Positions 25,394-34,453 of a stretch of 42,747 bases of DNA are shown in pieces. The position numbers were made by a program, and so were the translations under genes. The notes under the pieces are model-generated. The model had not been told where the DNA came from. It did no database searches and saw nothing but the letters and a program-made list of their open reading frames with translations. Source of the DNA: an uncultured Prevotellaceae bacterium (GTDB lineage: Bacteria; Bacteroidota; Bacteroidia; Bacteroidales; Muribaculaceae); assembly GCA_900317835.1 (NCBI GenBank), contig ONIL01000021.1, positions 1-42,747 on the forward strand, in the 5' to 3' direction. Every line of letters starts with the position of its first letter. Within the stretch, counting starts at the first letter, position 1.

Positions 25394-27235
25394 TCATTTT
25401 TCGATGGGCTCAGTCGCTTGATGGTTTTCATCTTTCAGCGCAATGATCAGTTTGTGGGCCTTAATGGGCCCCACTATTTCGGCCAAATCCTGTTCATTAG
25501 CCTCGCGGATACGTTTGAGCGACTTGAAGTGCTTGAGCAGCAGTGTGCGCGTTTTGGGACCTATGCCTGGCACATCGTCTAGTGCACTATGCACTTGGCC
25601 CTTGCTGCGCTGCTTGCGATGGAAAGAGATGGCAAACCGGTGTGCCTCGTCGCGCAGGCGTTGGATGACGTGCAACGTCTCGCTGTTCTTGTCAATGTAT
25701 AGGGGTACGCTATCGCCAGGGAAGAATACCTCATTGAGTCGCTTGGCGATGCCTACCACGGTAATCTGGTCGTGCAGGCCGACTTCATTCAATGCCTCAA
25801 TGGCTGAAGTTACCTGTCCCTTGCCGCCATCAACGATGAGCAGTTGTGGCAATTCTTGACCTTCTTGCACCAGACGGCTATAGCGGCGGCCGATGACCTC
25901 ACGCATCGAGGCGAAATCATCTGACCCTTGAACCGTCTTGATGTTGAAGTGGCGGTATTCTTTCTTGGACGGCTTGGCGTTGCGGAATACCACACAGGAT
26001 GCCACGGGACTCGAGCCGCTGATGTTGCTGTTGTCAAAGCACTCGACATGGCGTGGCAGCACAAGAAGGCGCAAGTCGCGTTGCATGGTCGTCAGCGTGC
26101 GCATGGTGCGCTGCTCGGGGTTGAGTTTTTCCATCATGCGCAGGCGGTCGGTGCGTTTCTGGGTTGCGTTCTTGATAGCGATATCCAGGAGTTTTTTCTT
26201 GTCGCCCCGTTGGGGAATGATGAAAGTCAATCCAGCAAAATCGACGTCGGGCATGACGTTTACCATGACTTCGGTGACATGGTCACGCAGGTAGGTGTCG
26301 GCGAAGCGTTGATGCACCTCGGCGATGGCCATTGACATGATCTCGGCATCGCTCTCGTCGCGTGTCGAGAGCCGGTATTCCAGAGTCAAGGACTGGACTA
26401 CTGCCCCACCCCTCATGTGCATGAAATTGACCCATGCGGCATCCTCGTCACGTAGCAGTCCAAATACATCAATGTTGTGTATCGTGGGGCTGACGATTAC
26501 CGAACGACGGCGCACGTGCTCCAGCAGCTTGTAGCGGCGCTTAACGACCTCAGCTTCCTCGAACCGCAGTTCACTGGCCAGTTGCTGCATCTGGCGCATG
26601 AGCAGCTCCATGAGCTGATGGGTGTCACCATTGAGAATTTGACGGATCTCGCTGATGTACTGCCCGTACTGTTCTGCCGTTACCAGTCCCTTGCAGCATC
26701 CTTCACACCGATGGATGTGGTACTGCAGGCACAAGCGGTGCTTATCCTCTTCGATTGTTTCACGTGAAACATTGAGCCGGCACGTCCGCAACGGATAGAT
26801 TTGTCTGATGGTGTCAATGAGCACTTTGGCTACTTCGGCACGCGGGTACGGACCGTAATATTTGTCTCCCTTGGCTCGAGCGTCGCGGGTGATGTACACA
26901 CGAGGATATAAGTCTCCCGAGACACATATCCAGGGATAGCTCTTATCGTCCTTGAGCAACACGTTGTATCGAGGTTGGTATTCCTTGATGAGGGCATTCT
27001 CGAGATCGAGGGCTTCCTCCTCGGTGTTGACCACAGTATATTCCAGATCAAAGATGTTGCGCACCAGCAGGTTGGTTCTCACCGACGGGTGCTCACGATT
27101 GAAGTAGGAATTGACGCGTCGCTTCAAGTTCTTGGCCTTGCCAACGTAGATGATAGTCCCCTCCCGATTACGGTAGCGATAAACGCCCGGCTCATCGGGA
27201 AGTAAGGATAACTTGAGTTTTAGATTATCGTTCAT
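25394..27235 (-). CDS. uvrC: Excinuclease ABC subunit C
   Basis: UvrC makes both incisions beside a bulky DNA lesion in nucleotide excision repair, with UvrA and UvrB. The 613-residue protein has the GIY-YIG nuclease domain at 14-95 (PGVYRYRN...IIYVGKAKNLKRRV), a Cys-containing central part, the UVR motif near 200-240 (LASELRFEEAEVVKRRYKLL), the RNase-H-like second nuclease domain about 380-540 (VECFDNSNISGS and LLIVDGGKGQ) and C-terminal helix-hairpin-helix motifs (DDVPGIGPKTRTLLLKHF). A 16-base parS-like palindrome is embedded in its coding sequence at 26756-26771. It is the last gene of the ybeY-mnmG-apt-uvrC operon, 25 bases after apt. Confidence 0.97.
   Translation of the reverse strand: MNDNLKLKLSLLPDEPGVYRYRNREGTIIYVGKAKNLKRRVNSYFNREHPSVRTNLLVRNIFDLEYTVVNTEEEALDLENALIKEYQPRYNVLLKDDKSYPWICVSGDLYPRVYITRDARAKGDKYYGPYPRAEVAKVLIDTIRQIYPLRTCRLNVSRETIEEDKHRLCLQYHIHRCEGCCKGLVTAEQYGQYISEIRQILNGDTHQLMELLMRQMQQLASELRFEEAEVVKRRYKLLEHVRRRSVIVSPTIHNIDVFGLLRDEDAAWVNFMHMRGGAVVQSLTLEYRLSTRDESDAEIMSMAIAEVHQRFADTYLRDHVTEVMVNVMPDVDFAGLTFIIPQRGDKKKLLDIAIKNATQKRTDRLRMMEKLNPEQRTMRTLTTMQRDLRLLVLPRHVECFDNSNISGSSPVASCVVFRNAKPSKKEYRHFNIKTVQGSDDFASMREVIGRRYSRLVQEGQELPQLLIVDGGKGQVTSAIEALNEVGLHDQITVVGIAKRLNEVFFPGDSVPLYIDKNSETLHVIQRLRDEAHRFAISFHRKQRSKGQVHSALDDVPGIGPKTRTLLLKHFKSLKRIREANEQDLAEIVGPIKAHKLIIALKDENHQATEPIEK
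26756..26771. other. parS: parS-like ParB-binding site inside uvrC
   Basis: TGTTTCACGTGAAACA is a perfect 16-base palindrome and an exact match to the widely conserved chromosomal parS consensus TGTTnCACGTGAAACA bound by ParB. In uvrC it encodes part of NVSRETIE, so the site is maintained within coding sequence. Confidence 0.88.
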
Positions 27236-27260
27236 CTGGTTGGCTAAGGATGGTGCTGGA

Positions 27261-27794
27261 CTAGAATGTGAACAGCGAGGTTACTTCAACGTCTGACGGG
27301 AATACGTCACGTCCGTGCAAGTCGGCCAGGTCGCAGATGAAGTTGATATAAATCTTCTTGGGATTCATCGATTTCACCAGCTCATAGGCGGCCAGCATCG
27401 TGCCACCGGTGGCAAGCAGGTCGTCGTGGATGACTACCACATCGTCAGGAGTGATGGCGTCCTTGTGAATCTCGATAGTATCGGTTCCATACTCCTTGGT
27501 ATAAGACTTCTGGATGACCACAGCAGGAAGTTTACCCGGTTTTCGCAGGGGGACAAAGCCGGCTCCCAACTGAGTGGCGAGAATTGCTCCGCCGATGAAG
27601 CCGCGTGCCTCGATGCCAACGACACGGGTTACCCCCTTGTCACGATAAAGGTCGGTCATGGCTTCAGTCATGATTTGTAATGCCTCAGGATCCTTGAAAG
27701 CGGTGGTCAAATCCTTGAATTGAATCCCTGGAACAGGAAAGTCAGGAATGTTGCGCACAACACTTTTTACTTGTTCTAATTGTTGCTTATTCAT
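27261..27794 (-). CDS. apt: Adenine phosphoribosyltransferase
   Basis: Apt salvages adenine to AMP with PRPP, in the cytoplasm. The 177-residue length is typical. Motifs: FPVPGIQFKDLT (about 19-30), VVGIEARGFIGGAILATQLGAGFVPLRKPGKLP (about 58-90) and the PRPP loop VVIHDDLLATGGTM (about 120-133). It lies between mnmG (43 bases upstream, with a parS-like site in the gap) and uvrC (25 bases downstream), all on the minus strand, and is probably co-transcribed with them. Confidence 0.97.
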   Translation of the reverse strand: MNKQQLEQVKSVVRNIPDFPVPGIQFKDLTTAFKDPEALQIMTEAMTDLYRDKGVTRVVGIEARGFIGGAILATQLGAGFVPLRKPGKLPAVVIQKSYTKEYGTDTIEIHKDAITPDDVVVIHDDLLATGGTMLAAYELVKSMNPKKIYINFICDLADLHGRDVFPSDVEVTSLFTF

Positions 27795-27820
27795 TGTTAA
27801 TCAATATATTAGGTTAAATT

Positions 27821-27836
27821 TGTTCCACGTGAAACA
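27821..27836. other. parS: parS-like ParB-binding site between mnmG and apt
   Basis: TGTTCCACGTGAAACA is an exact match to TGTTnCACGTGAAACA, with the one variable base breaking the palindrome. It starts 26 bases before the apt start (minus-strand sense) and ends one base from the mnmG stop codon. It is 1065 bases from the site in uvrC. Confidence 0.88.
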
Positions 27837-27837
27837 A

Positions 27838-29715
27838 TTATCTGCCCAATAACACGAGCAGTATGTTGATGTCGCTGGGTGATACGCCTGGGATACGGGA
27901 TGCCTGCCCGACGGTTTCGGGGTCGATGGCTTGAAGTTTCTGTCGTGCTTCGGTGGAGATTTGGTGAATTGTGGAATAGTCAAATTTCCCTTTGAGCGTG
28001 ACATTGTCGAGGCGGGCCACGCGGTCGGCAATGAGCGATTCGCGTTCGATGTATCCACGGTATTTGATGGCAATCTCGGCTGCCTCAACGATCTCGTCTC
28101 TTCGCTCTGTCTCTAGGGCGTTGATGCAGTCGTGCAGGTCGGGTAATGCCTCGGCCAGTATCGCCATATTGAGTTGCGGGCGCAATAACAAGTCATGCAG
28201 ACGCTGTCCTTGGGTCAGGGGTGACATGCCGTTGGCCTCGAGCGTCGGGTTAATGGCTGTTGCTTTGACTGTATACTTGCGGCAAAACTCCGTGATGTGT
28301 TCAATCTGATCTCGCTTTGAACACATCAGGTCATAGCGCTCTTGGGTGGCAAGGCCCAGCTGGTAGCTCTTCTCGGTAAGTCTCATGTCGGCATCATCCT
28401 GGCGCAGCAAGATGCGGTGTTCGGCACGTGAGGTGAACATGCGATAGGGCTCGTCTACACCGCATGTCACCAGGTCATCTATCAGCACACCGATATAGGC
28501 TTCATTGCGGCCCAGAGTAAATGGTTCCTTACCCGTGACGCTCTGATGGGCATTTATGCCGGCAACCAACCCCTGCCCTGCTGCCTCCTCATATCCTGTT
28601 GTGCCATTTACTTGGCCAGCGAGGAACAGGTTCTTGATGATTTTTGATTCGAGGCTGTGGTTGAGTTGGGTGGGGTCGAAAAAGTCATATTCGATAGCAT
28701 AGCCTGGGCGGAAGGCATGAACGTCTCGCAGCGCGGGGATGTGGCGCAAAGCCTCGATCTGCACTTCCCATGGCAGTGATGATGAGAATCCGTTGAGATA
28801 CATCTCATGGGTGTTCGCTCCCTCGGGCTCGATGAAAAGTTGATGGGATGTCTTGTCGGCAAAGGTCACGATTTTGGTCTCGATGCTGGGGCAGTATCGA
28901 GGCCCTATACTCGTGATTTGCCCGTTATAGAGTGGTGATAAGGGTAAGCCTTCACGCAACACATCATGCACTTTCTCATTGGTGTGCACAATCCAGCAGG
29001 GCCGTTGAGGCAACTTGGAAGATATGCCAGGCAGGTAGGAGAAATGGTGGAAATCATCTTCTCCCTCCTGCTTGATGCATTGTGAGAAATCGATAGTGCG
29101 TTCGTCCAGGCGTGGTGGTGTGCCCGTTTTCATCCTGCCCACAGTGAACCCCAGGGCTGCAAGTTGTTCAGTAATACCTGTTGCAGGGGGCTCTGCTACG
29201 CGTCCACCGGGCGTTTTCACGCTGCCCACATGCATCAGTCCGTTAAGGAATGTGCCTGCGGTGAGGATCACAGCGCGTGCTGTGAATTCCATCCCAAGGG
29301 CTGTTTTAACCCCCTTCACTACCCCACTCTCGATTTTCAGCTCATTCACTGAATCCTGCCACATGAACAGGTTGGGTGTGTTCTCCAGCATGTTGCGCCA
29401 TTCAAGGATGAACTGTTGACGATCACTTTGGGAGCGAGGACTCCACATGGCGGGTCCCTTGCTGCGGTTAAGCATCCTGAACTGGATGCTGCTGCGGTCG
29501 GTGATGATGCCCATCTGGCCACCCAGTGCGTCAATCTCACGCACAATCTGCCCCTTGGCGATGCCGCCAACGGCCGGATTGCAGCTCATCTGGGCAATCT
29601 TGTTCATGTCGATGGTGATGAGCAGTGTGCGCGATCCCAACCGGGCTGACGCACATGCCGCCTCACAACCGGCATGGCCGGCACCCACAACGATGACATC
29701 ATAGTCGTTTCTCAT
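27838..29715 (-). CDS. mnmG: tRNA uridine-5-carboxymethylaminomethyl synthase subunit MnmG (GidA)
   Basis: MnmG, with MnmE, modifies the wobble uridine of several tRNAs using FAD and a folate. The 625-residue length is standard. Motifs: FAD-binding VVGAGHAGCEAACASARLG (about 9-27), MSCNPAVGGIAKGQIVREID (about 44-63), DALGGQMG, and AGQVNGTTGYEEAAGQGL (about 367-384). Its ATG overlaps the ybeY stop by three bases (ATGA), so the two are probably translationally coupled. In many bacteria gidA lies beside the replication origin, which fits the two parS-like sites found here. Confidence 0.98.
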   Translation of the reverse strand: MRNDYDVIVVGAGHAGCEAACASARLGSRTLLITIDMNKIAQMSCNPAVGGIAKGQIVREIDALGGQMGIITDRSSIQFRMLNRSKGPAMWSPRSQSDRQQFILEWRNMLENTPNLFMWQDSVNELKIESGVVKGVKTALGMEFTARAVILTAGTFLNGLMHVGSVKTPGGRVAEPPATGITEQLAALGFTVGRMKTGTPPRLDERTIDFSQCIKQEGEDDFHHFSYLPGISSKLPQRPCWIVHTNEKVHDVLREGLPLSPLYNGQITSIGPRYCPSIETKIVTFADKTSHQLFIEPEGANTHEMYLNGFSSSLPWEVQIEALRHIPALRDVHAFRPGYAIEYDFFDPTQLNHSLESKIIKNLFLAGQVNGTTGYEEAAGQGLVAGINAHQSVTGKEPFTLGRNEAYIGVLIDDLVTCGVDEPYRMFTSRAEHRILLRQDDADMRLTEKSYQLGLATQERYDLMCSKRDQIEHITEFCRKYTVKATAINPTLEANGMSPLTQGQRLHDLLLRPQLNMAILAEALPDLHDCINALETERRDEIVEAAEIAIKYRGYIERESLIADRVARLDNVTLKGKFDYSTIHQISTEARQKLQAIDPETVGQASRIPGVSPSDINILLVLLGR

Positions 29716-32085: not shown

Positions 32086-33201
32086 TCAACGAGCAAGGAG
32101 GTTCCTTTCGCGCCATCGACCTGGGGTTTCTCCCTCGATTGACTTGAATGTACTCATGAAATGAGACTTGGACGAGAAACCCACATTCAAGGCCACGCGG
32201 TCCAGCGAGAGGGTGGGGGAGGAGAGCATCAGTCGCTTTGCCTCGGCCACACGCAGGCGTCCAAGCCATGTGTTGAAGCTGCAGCCATAATTCACGTTGA
32301 TGTATTCTGAAAGATAAGTGCGGTTGGTCCCCAGTTGTTCTGCTACTTGTAACATGGTAACGCCCAGTGTTTTGTAACCTCCATGGTCTACCCAACTCTC
32401 TATCTTGGGTAATAGGGTCATGTGCCGCTCCTGCACATCGTGTGCAGCACGGCGTCTTATCCTGAGATGATAATTTGCTTCGGCCAAAGGATTATAGTCG
32501 ATGACGAGGTTAACAAAACTGATAAACATGTAAACCCAAATGGCAATCAAGGCAAAATTAAATACGGTCGTGTCGCTCACCGACAGCAATGCCAATAAAA
32601 CATAGAGCACAGCAAGCGACGACAACGCAATGACGCAGCGCATCACCATGCTCAAGCATGCAAAGCGCGCGCTATCCTCACTGCCAGGTTCCCGATCAAG
32701 TTTTCTCAACAGCCGGTAGTTATATAGAAAGACAATTGTCAACCTCACCAACTCAACAAAGTAGATGATGAGTGATGCTGCGGTTAAGACATTGGTCCAC
32801 AGTTGATTAAAAGGAATGGCAATCCACAACAGCACCAGACAACCACAAAAAATGACGCATGTCGCAAATAAACGTTCCTTCGAGAGATTGGTGGCAGCCG
32901 CCAGAGCAATAAAAGAGGTGCTAATAACCAGAGTTGCGATATATAGTATACTGATATTCAGCGCATTACATATTTCCAGAGGAAGATTTCTCAACCACAA
33001 CACATGCTGAATCACTATTGATAATCCCACCAGTAGCGACACCAGTGCAACGGCCAGCTTGGCACGGCGCAGCCAGAAGGTGGAGCGCACCTTGTCATTG
33101 CCGATGAACAGCAACGCAATCCCCATGATCGTGACTCCGACCATCAGGCACAACTGGGAGAAACCATATAATGTAATCATTCTGAATGCTAAATCCTGCA
33201 T
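32086..33201 (-). CDS. Membrane-anchored AraC-type regulator
   Basis: A 371-residue protein with seven or so hydrophobic helices over residues 1-240 (for example YIATLVISTSFIALAAATN and ALIAIWVYMFISFVNLVI) followed by a cytoplasmic AraC-type double helix-turn-helix (about 265-365): TMLQVAEQLGTNRTYLSEYIN and LSLDRVALNVGFSSKSHFMSTFK, ending GETPGRWRERN. It probably senses a membrane or periplasmic signal and acts on DNA while tethered. A -7 box at 33213-33220 places the transcript start just before the ATG. It is divergent from a second regulator of the same design. Confidence 0.9.
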   Translation of the reverse strand: MQDLAFRMITLYGFSQLCLMVGVTIMGIALLFIGNDKVRSTFWLRRAKLAVALVSLLVGLSIVIQHVLWLRNLPLEICNALNISILYIATLVISTSFIALAAATNLSKERLFATCVIFCGCLVLLWIAIPFNQLWTNVLTAASLIIYFVELVRLTIVFLYNYRLLRKLDREPGSEDSARFACLSMVMRCVIALSSLAVLYVLLALLSVSDTTVFNFALIAIWVYMFISFVNLVIDYNPLAEANYHLRIRRRAAHDVQERHMTLLPKIESWVDHGGYKTLGVTMLQVAEQLGTNRTYLSEYINVNYGCSFNTWLGRLRVAEAKRLMLSSPTLSLDRVALNVGFSSKSHFMSTFKSIEGETPGRWRERNLLAR

Positions 33202-33212
33202 GAATCAATGGA

Positions 33213-33220
33213 CAAAATTA
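33213..33220 (-). promoter_or_regulatory. -7 box of the minus-strand AraC-type gene
   Basis: Minus-strand TAATTTTG, full consensus, 11 bases before the ATG at 33201. TTGT at 33240-33243 with a 19-base spacer is a fair -33 box. Confidence 0.65.
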
Positions 33221-33297
33221 TAGCAAAAAATGACTAATTACAATAAAAAAGCCGAGAAACTGGTAGCAAATTATCAAAACATACAGCAAAATAGTAG

Positions 33298-33305
33298 TAA
33301 ATTTG
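33298..33305 (+). promoter_or_regulatory. -7 box of the plus-strand AraC-type gene
   Basis: TAAATTTG, full consensus, 38 bases before ATG 33344. The two divergent -7 boxes are about 77 bases apart, so regulation of one could affect the other. Confidence 0.6.
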
Positions 33306-33343
33306 TCGTCCTTTTATAGCAATTTGTTGTGAATTACTTGAAC

Positions 33344-34453
33344 ATGGAATACAGCCTGGTGCTTGCCGGATGGGTTATCGGACTATTGTTCGGTACGATC
33401 TGCCTTGCCTTCAAGACACCGCTTCATGCTCGACAGGCTTATTACAATAGAGGCAAAAATATCACAGGCATTGTCTATCTGCTTTTCGGTCTTGAACTCT
33501 TTTTCCAGTGGCTCATCCGTTTTTATGTCGAGCTGCACAACCTGGTGCTGTCGGTTTCGGTGTACCTGTTCACCTACTGTGCCGCCGTCATTTTGATTGC
33601 TATAGGATTCTGTACGCTGTTGGCTCCCAGTCTGTTGAATAAACGGCAATACAACATTTGCATTGGGATTCTAGCGGTTTATTCCCTCATTTTGTTGGTC
33701 CTGAACCTCTTGCCTGCAAGACCGTTGCAGGTGAAGGGCATCATCGCAGCATGCGTGGTTCTATTCATCATCAATTGCACGATGATTTACAATTGCATCA
33801 TGATCTACCGCAAAGTCATCAATGACCTGCGCACCTATTACTCCGACGTTCTTGACAACCTCATCAACTGGATGCCCGGCGTTGGCATTGGTGTCATGCT
33901 GTTGTTCCTGGCTGCCCCTATCACCTGTTTAGCTCCCAGAGAAGTGGGCATTTACCAGTTGGCAATGGGTATCATCCTGATGGTTTACATTTTCTTGTGC
34001 ATTATCAACTTCTACTTCAGATATGATAGGGTGGCTGCCGCTTTCAGCATTGAGGATGATATCTGCGACGATGATGCTAACGAAGACAACACGACGGAAC
34101 ATGCCGCTCCCAGTTTGAGCGAGTCGCTGTGCGAGGTGTTGCAGGAAAAGGAAAAACACTGGCAGGAACAGGGCCGATACCGCGAGCCAGGGCTCACCAT
34201 CGAGCAAGCGGCTCGCGACATGGGCACCAACCGCAACTACCTGTCCCGCTACCTGAACCAGGAGAGGCACATGACATTCTATGAATGGGTGGCAAAAATG
34301 CGCATCGAGGAGGCCCAAACCCTCATGGCCAACAGTTCAATGACCATGGAGCAAATTGCGGCCCAAGTGGGCTTCTCTTCTTACCCTACATTCTCGAGTA
34401 CATTTAAAAAAGTGGTCGGAATCACCCCGAATCGATGGCGAAATAGCCAATAA
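33344..34453 (+). CDS. Membrane-anchored AraC-type regulator (divergent partner)
   Basis: A 369-residue regulator with about six hydrophobic helices in residues 1-225 and an acidic linker (EDDICDDDANEDNTTE) before a C-terminal AraC-type domain: LTIEQAARDMGTNRNYLSRYLN and MTMEQIAAQVGFSSYPTFSSTFK, ending GITPNRWRNSQ. ATG 33344 is chosen over GTG 33329 because the downstream ATG gives a normal N-terminal helix. It shares the same architecture and the same GTNRxYLS motif with the divergent gene at 32086-33201, but the membrane parts are not obviously alike. Confidence 0.9.
   Translation: MEYSLVLAGWVIGLLFGTICLAFKTPLHARQAYYNRGKNITGIVYLLFGLELFFQWLIRFYVELHNLVLSVSVYLFTYCAAVILIAIGFCTLLAPSLLNKRQYNICIGILAVYSLILLVLNLLPARPLQVKGIIAACVVLFIINCTMIYNCIMIYRKVINDLRTYYSDVLDNLINWMPGVGIGVMLLFLAAPITCLAPREVGIYQLAMGIILMVYIFLCIINFYFRYDRVAAAFSIEDDICDDDANEDNTTEHAAPSLSESLCEVLQEKEKHWQEQGRYREPGLTIEQAARDMGTNRNYLSRYLNQERHMTFYEWVAKMRIEEAQTLMANSSMTMEQIAAQVGFSSYPTFSSTFKKVVGITPNRWRNSQ

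What the first reader, a model, noticed from the sequence alone, without database searches (positions are those of the whole stretch)
26756..27836. Two exact parS-consensus sites 1065 bases apart, flanking apt
TGTTTCACGTGAAACA and TGTTCCACGTGAAACA both match TGTTnCACGTGAAACA. A 16-base site with 15 fixed positions is very unlikely twice in a 43-kb window by chance. Such sites cluster near the origin and load ParB for chromosome segregation. The neighbouring mnmG (gidA) is origin-linked in many bacteria, so this window probably lies in the origin-proximal ParB domain.
Basis: partly seen in the sequence, partly recalled or inferred. Interest (0 to 1): 0.75.

Follow-up and report, generated by a model that had tools for sequence, protein, structure and literature searches.

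The report
Two parS centromere sites beside mnmG
This gut-type bacterium appears to mark its chromosome for segregation with two short DNA sites beside the gene mnmG, one of them written inside the coding sequence of a DNA-repair gene; most relatives examined keep such a site at the same gene although other origin-marker genes have moved away.

Summary
Confirmed. The two parS-consensus palindromes are at the stated places and are the only exact matches in the 3.07-Mb draft genome. Site 2 sits one base after the mnmG stop codon. Site 1 lies inside uvrC, spelling Val-Ser-Arg-Glu-Thr.

In Bacteroidales the exact motif occurs in 242 of 393 genomes. In the motif-found loci that were returned, a site abuts mnmG in 30/30 order, 29/30 family and 15/15 genus loci. 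In 80 loci picked by mnmG alone, 72 carry a site (<=1 mismatch) within 250 bp after mnmG.

In three single-contig relatives, rRNA-operon orientation and GC skew put the origin at or near this locus; dnaA and parAB lie elsewhere. The genome's single ParB has parS-type recognition residues.

All 13 UvrC with the VSRET peptide encode it identically; a sister clade has a variant site at other uvrC codons.

Best reading: real chromosomal parS sites, bound by ParB and moved by ParA, without a recognisable SMC. The kind is known. Less expected: parS is tied to mnmG, and second copies arose at three different positions beyond apt. ParB binding is untested.

The parts
26756..26771 (.). parS site 1, TGTTTCACGTGAAACA, perfect palindrome inside uvrC (last base of codon 155 to codon 160; peptide V-S-R-E-T)
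27821..27836 (.). parS site 2, TGTTCCACGTGAAACA, between apt and the 3' end of mnmG, one base from the mnmG stop codon
25394..27235 (-). uvrC, excinuclease subunit C, host of site 1
   Evidence: TIGR00194, E 5.5e-161
27261..27794 (-). apt, adenine phosphoribosyltransferase, between the two sites
   Evidence: TIGR01090, 188.5 bits, cut-off 185.85
27838..29715 (-). mnmG (gidA), the gene whose end carries a parS-like site in most Bacteroidales loci examined
   Evidence: TIGR00136, E 1.4e-236

Best explanation
The two palindromes are chromosomal parS sites of an uncultured Bacteroidales bacterium. The genome's single ParB (293 aa, contig C50, encoded just downstream of a ParA-like gene) recognises them, loads as a CTP clamp and spreads over the mnmG-apt-uvrC region; ParA then moves the duplicated region apart, so the locus acts as the centromere of the origin half of the chromosome. 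Shown here: exact sites, uniqueness in the genome, deep conservation at mnmG, origin-side position in relatives, a ParB with parS-type recognition residues, DNA-level conservation inside uvrC. Inferred: binding, CTP clamping, spreading and segregation (from work on ParB in other bacteria). Site 2 is probably the older, mnmG-anchored site. Site 1 is probably a younger second copy whose DNA sequence is held fixed inside a variable stretch of UvrC. No SMC-length protein was seen, so the sites probably serve ParA-driven segregation rather than SMC loading.
For: Only exact copies in 3.07 Mb, both here. Exact motif in 242/393 order, 187/198 family and 302/395 phylum genomes; the reversed control appears in 1, 3 and 6 of these genomes by my count. 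A site abuts mnmG in 30/30 order, 29/30 family and 15/15 genus loci returned (genus scanned at <=1 mismatch). Picked by mnmG alone: 77/80 loci have a site with <=1 mismatch, 72/80 within 250 bp 3' of mnmG. Of 30 genomes chosen for lacking the exact motif, 29 gave an mnmG locus and 24 of these 29 have a site with 1 or 2 mismatches, 23 of them beside mnmG, against 0 of 29 for the reversed consensus. Origin-side position in 3 of 3 single-contig genomes. One ParB in the own genome; 7 of 8 parS-contact positions kept, including Arg173 and Gly201, which separate ParB from Noc in PMC7383237 (passages). All 13 UvrC with VSRET encode it identically; 5 of the 7 codon-invariant columns among 122 conserved degenerate columns are these five.
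Against: No binding data. The own genome is a draft, so the distance to its oriC is unknown. 151 of 393 order genomes lack the exact motif, and 5 of 29 mnmG loci from such genomes lack even a 3-mismatch site. One contact position differs (Ser172 is Lys here), and the best-scoring solved chain is a Noc, narrowly ahead of Spo0J. parAB is far from parS in the 3 single-contig relatives (365, 423 and about 760 kb). In same-genus G551 GC skew is weak and its local minimum is 81 kb from parS; AT skew there points 230-320 kb away. Outside the order, 7 of 26 loci have no MnmG within the fetched stretch.
Confidence: 0.92

Rival explanations
1. The palindrome at site 2 is an operator for a transcription factor controlling apt or the mnmG-apt-uvrC gene row, unrelated to ParB.
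For: Site 2 lies 26 bases ahead of the apt start codon, and the mnmG-apt-uvrC order is common in relatives.
Against: The site stays at mnmG where no Apt match lies next to it (for example L218, L224). It is upstream of mnmG in 3 of 30 order loci and in 19 of 26 loci of other orders of the class. A copy lies inside uvrC codons. The motif is the parS consensus used in PMC10197239 (passages).
Confidence: 0.04
2. Site 1 in uvrC is a by-product of protein sequence or chance, and only site 2 is functional.
For: The stretch is coding, and 2 of 16 same-genus genomes lack any second site there.
Against: VSRET has 1152 possible encodings, yet all 13 UvrC with the peptide use one, while other conserved columns average about 2 to 3.6 codons by degeneracy class. 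The other 96 of 109 UvrC rows have a different peptide there. A sister clade has a parS-like VSHET run at other codons, also identical in 6 of 6 rows, 5 of them distinct.
Confidence: 0.05
3. The sites are NBS-like targets of a Noc-type or plasmid-type ParB relative, not of chromosomal ParB.
For: ParB-family proteins are many; G551 has three further TIGR00180 hits, and the best PDB match of the own ParB is a Noc.
Against: The own genome has a single TIGR00180 hit, and its residues at the two specificity positions are Arg and Gly, the parS type, not Gln and Arg of Noc.
Confidence: 0.02

Closest known systems
Chromosomal ParABS with parS consensus TGTTTCACGTGAAACA (Bacillus, Caulobacter, Pseudomonas)
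   Same: Identical 16-bp palindrome, origin-side cluster, one chromosomal parA-parB pair, ParB with parS-type contact residues.
   Different: parS is uncoupled from both parAB and dnaA and instead tied to mnmG; SMC, the usual partner, was not recognisable by PF02463.
Gut Bacteroidetes of the OMM12 set, Bacteroides caecimuris and Muribaculum intestinale (PMC10197239)
   Same: The paper (passages and section 20 read) reports parS clusters used with GC skew to place the origin, origin not always at dnaA, and no known condensin in these two species.
   Different: The words mnmG, gidA, uvrC and apt do not occur in its main text.
Prevotella intermedia OMA14 oriC (PMC4755523)
   Same: oriC predicted at a skew switch with DnaA boxes, dnaA elsewhere, stated as common in Bacteroidetes (passages read).
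   Different: The words parB and gidA do not occur in its main text.
parS sites inside coding sequences, as in Bacillus subtilis spo0J (recalled, not read here)
   Same: The palindrome is accommodated in codons.
   Different: Here the host gene is uvrC. Of 7 papers holding both words, 6 were listed and none shows a uvrC-embedded parS in its title or abstract start (listing); one, PMC9712426 (passages), calls uvrC oriC-proximal in Borrelia and used it for an introduced P1 parS tag.

Membership tests
chromosomal parS site | 16-bp palindrome matching TGTTNCACGTGNAACA | tested here: met
   Both sites exact.
chromosomal parS site | Few copies, clustered in one part of the chromosome | tested here: met
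   2 exact copies in 3.07 Mb, 1065 bases apart.
chromosomal parS site | Position near the replication origin | tested here: met
   Met in 3 of 3 single-contig relatives by rRNA orientation and sampled GC skew; in the draft genome itself it cannot be closed.
chromosomal parS site | Cognate ParB with parS-type DNA contacts | tested here: met
   One ParB; conserved at Q162, G170, K171, R173, N178, G201, R204 (Caulobacter numbering, set by matching the residues named in PMC7383237 to the aligned chain), different at S172 (Lys).
chromosomal parS site | ParB binds the site | not testable with these tools
   Needs gel shift or ChIP-seq.
ParABS system | parA next to parB | tested here: met
   255-aa ORF with KGGVGKTT directly upstream of parB in L036; named ParA from recall of the family, no profile search run on it.
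ParABS system with SMC loading | SMC-ScpAB present | tested here: inconclusive
   All 11 PF02463 hits in the own genome lie in frames of at most 655 aa, the best two 582 and 391 aa; no SMC-length frame. Draft 96% complete; ScpAB, MukB and MksB not searched.
Noc/NBS | Gln173 and Arg201 (Caulobacter ParB numbering) | tested here: not met
   Arg and Gly at these positions.

The most novel reading that the evidence does not exclude
In Bacteroidales the chromosome's centromere is locked to the ends of mnmG, a surviving piece of the ancestral origin gene cluster, while dnaA and parAB have drifted away. Selection for a second parS 0.6-1.5 kb beyond it has repeatedly created one, in the apt-uvrC gap of Prevotella-like and some other genomes and at two different codon positions inside uvrC in sister clades, making a paired, SMC-independent centromere cassette that can also serve as a sequence tag for the origin half in draft genomes.
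Probability: 0.45. Interest if true: 0.6.

Novelty: new member of a known kind. Interest (0 to 1): 0.48.

Why it matters
dnaA is a poor origin marker in this group, and many of its members are known only as draft genomes. A parS tied to mnmG gives a simple landmark for the origin half, useful for growth-rate estimates from read coverage and for orienting contigs. The locus also offers a natural experiment: parS fixed at the DNA level inside codons of a repair gene, with second sites at several positions, in bacteria that seem to lack the usual SMC partner. This makes the question of why parS copies cluster, and what ParB does without SMC, testable in culturable relatives.

Tried and rejected
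DnaA-box cluster in the window: one TTATNCACA match, 1.71 expected by chance; no oriC in the window is claimed. GC skew inside the window alone is uninformative. Gene-strand bias gave inconsistent origin positions, third-position skew in G551 was weak and pointed to about 1.0-1.1 Mb, AT skew in G551 pointed to 1.42-1.51 Mb and in G327 to 2.96-3.13 Mb. The radical-SAM gene next to the oriC candidate of G292 was tested as a landmark in six other genomes: in the 900 bases upstream none has a comparable DnaA-box cluster, so the lead was dropped. A tree meant to date the uvrC site does not settle one gain with losses against two gains: the carriers fall in two groups and the relevant node has support 0.739. 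The idea that zero-motif genomes lack parS was rejected for most of the 30 tested (24 of 29 mnmG loci have a site with 1 or 2 mismatches; one genome gave no mnmG hit).

The place lists were cut by the tool, so adjacency to mnmG was checked only on the loci returned (30, 30 and 27 new ones; of the 27, L174 is from the own order) plus 15 genus loci. The 80 named loci are the best of at least 589 matches, hence near relatives.

Full report
Observation. Searched through the whole genome in which the window lies (3,067,028 bases, 65 contigs; the window is all of contig C15), they are the only two exact matches. With 14 fixed bases about 0.01 would be expected (my arithmetic). At two mismatches the motif is not enriched elsewhere: three further places, fewer than the reversed-pattern control. 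Site 1 lies inside uvrC and reads V-S-R-E-T on the coding strand. Site 2 lies between apt and mnmG and ends one base from the mnmG stop codon. NCBIfam names NAD kinase, UvrC, Apt, MnmG and YbeY in a row.

Conservation. The exact pattern TGTTNCACGTGNAACA occurs in 242 of 393 genomes of the order, 187 of 198 of the family and 302 of 395 of the phylum, mostly in 1 to 3 copies; the reversed control appears in 1, 3 and 6 of these genomes by my count. The motif-found loci that the tool returned were checked for MnmG: 30 of 30 order loci (27 downstream, 3 upstream), 29 of 30 family loci and 15 of 15 genus loci have a site beside mnmG (the genus loci scanned at up to one mismatch). To remove the bias of picking by motif, 80 named loci were fetched by MnmG alone: 59 have an exact TGTTYCACGTGRAACA, 18 more have one mismatch, 3 have none at up to two; 72 of 80 have a <=1-mismatch site within 250 bp downstream of mnmG, 65 of these within 60 bp. 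Thirty order genomes chosen because they lack the exact motif gave 29 mnmG loci; 24 of these have a site with one or two mismatches (23 beside mnmG) and 5 have none, against none of 29 at that level for the reversed consensus. In 26 loci from other orders of the class the site is upstream of mnmG in 19 (in 4 of them more than 250 bp away), and 7 loci (families f125 and f129) show no MnmG within the fetched 3 kb.

Origin. The draft cannot be closed, so three single-contig relatives were used. In the same-genus genome G551 rRNA operons point away from a zone between 1.496 and 2.370 Mb, the sampled GC-skew switch lies between 1.587 and 1.678 Mb, and parS is at 1.738 Mb; dnaA is at position 73, on the terminus side. 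In G292 the rRNA zone is 1.591-2.004 Mb, the switch 1.704-1.858 Mb, parS 1.804 Mb, dnaA at 330. In G327 the rRNA zone is 2.272-3.197 Mb (1.843-3.197 Mb if the partial gene at 2.272 Mb is left out; small fragments at 0.336 Mb have the sense opposite to this scheme), the switch 2.470-2.634 Mb and parS 2.629 Mb. parB lies at 1.372, 2.227 and 0.104 Mb, so parAB has also left the locus. Contiguous stretches refined this: the local cumulative-skew minimum is at 1,836,657 in G292 and 1,656,365 in G551, 33 and 81 kb from parS. Skew was sampled, not complete (40 stretches in G551, 20 in each of the others), and strand bias, third-position skew in G551 and AT skew in G551 and G327 were weak or pointed elsewhere. 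PMC4755523 (passages) states that oriC is commonly far from dnaA in Bacteroidetes, and PMC10197239 (passages) says the origin does not systematically go with dnaA in its gut species.

Partner protein. The own genome has one TIGR00180 hit, a 293-aa ParB encoded just downstream of a ParA-like ORF. Its closest solved relatives are Noc, Spo0J and ParB chains, a Noc narrowly first. Mapped on Caulobacter ParB through that alignment, 7 of 8 parS-contacting positions are kept; Arg173 and Gly201, which PMC7383237 (passages) shows to separate parS-binders from Noc, are both of the parS type; Ser172 is Lys. PF02463 found no SMC-length frame in the own genome (11 hits, frames up to 655 aa), in line with PMC10197239 section 20, which found no known condensin in B. 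caecimuris and M. intestinale.

The uvrC copy. Among the 109 UvrC rows examined (my count; the sets overlap), 13 carry the peptide VSRET at this place, and all 13 encode it by GTT TCA CGT GAA ACA preceded by T, giving the exact 16-mer. Three of the 13 come from the mnmG-picked set. Over UvrC residues 2-263 of these 13, 122 conserved columns with degenerate codons include only 7 whose codon never varies, and 5 of the 7 are these five; if columns were independent this would have a chance of about 1e-7 (my arithmetic), but the sequences are related and the columns adjacent, so the figure is only indicative. Of 16 same-genus genomes, 10 have this copy, 4 have TGTTTCACATGAAACA further along uvrC and 2 have neither. 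That variant sits in codons 185-189 as VSHET, again identical in 6 of 6 rows, of which 5 are distinct. Of the 80 mnmG-picked loci, 17 have a second <=1-mismatch site in the gap between apt and the estimated uvrC start, most of them labelled Prevotella, Prevotellaceae or Bacteroidaceae, one more overlaps that start, and 5 have it inside uvrC (names). So second sites occur at three different positions beyond apt.

Mechanism and standing. The evidence fits ordinary chromosomal parS: ParB nucleates here, forms sliding CTP clamps and is pulled by ParA, so the mnmG region leads segregation. Binding and segregation are inferred. As a class this is known. In ten paper searches (listings) and the passages read of seven papers I did not find a statement that parS is anchored at mnmG in Bacteroidales or embedded in uvrC. 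The key survey (Livny 2007) is not held, so priority cannot be claimed.

Noticed in passing
L060 and L314-L322 (unnamed family member G577): This genome has 10 exact TGTTCCACGTGGAACA copies on 10 contigs; one is at mnmG-apt (L320). Five loci (L060, L314, L318, L319, L322) share 71-98 bp including the site at 74-83% identity, as if a small dispersed repeat had carried parS around.
   Followed up: partly
L293:4260-4690 (G292:C1 about 1,838,260-1,838,690): Candidate oriC: an AT-rich gap (77% AT over 300 bases) with three same-strand DnaA boxes beside the local skew minimum, next to a radical-SAM gene, 34.5 kb from parS, with the dnaA gene far away. Not seen at the orthologous gene in six other genomes.
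   Followed up: partly
L069, L070, L071, L079, L210 (uvrC codons 185-189): A sister clade carries TGTTTCACATGAAACA, a one-mismatch parS, in uvrC as V-S-H-E-T with identical codons. Whether ParB accepts the central CATG is unknown.
   Followed up: partly
L182-L185 and L191-L193: In two families of other orders the exact motif has no MnmG within the fetched 3 kb; neighbours include an alpha/beta hydrolase, threonine synthase, proline racemase and GDPD genes.
   Followed up: partly
window 32086-34453: Two divergent AraC-type regulator genes (family hits below curated cut-offs) in a stretch of lower GC, about 46%.
   Followed up: no
G551:C1:1619311 and G292:C1:1710701 (PF02463 hits): A RecF-sized PF02463 protein (374-aa frame) lies on the origin side in both genomes, perhaps another remnant of the ancestral origin cluster; in G327 the like-sized hit (1.779 Mb) is not near the origin. 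Named RecF-like from size only.
   Followed up: no
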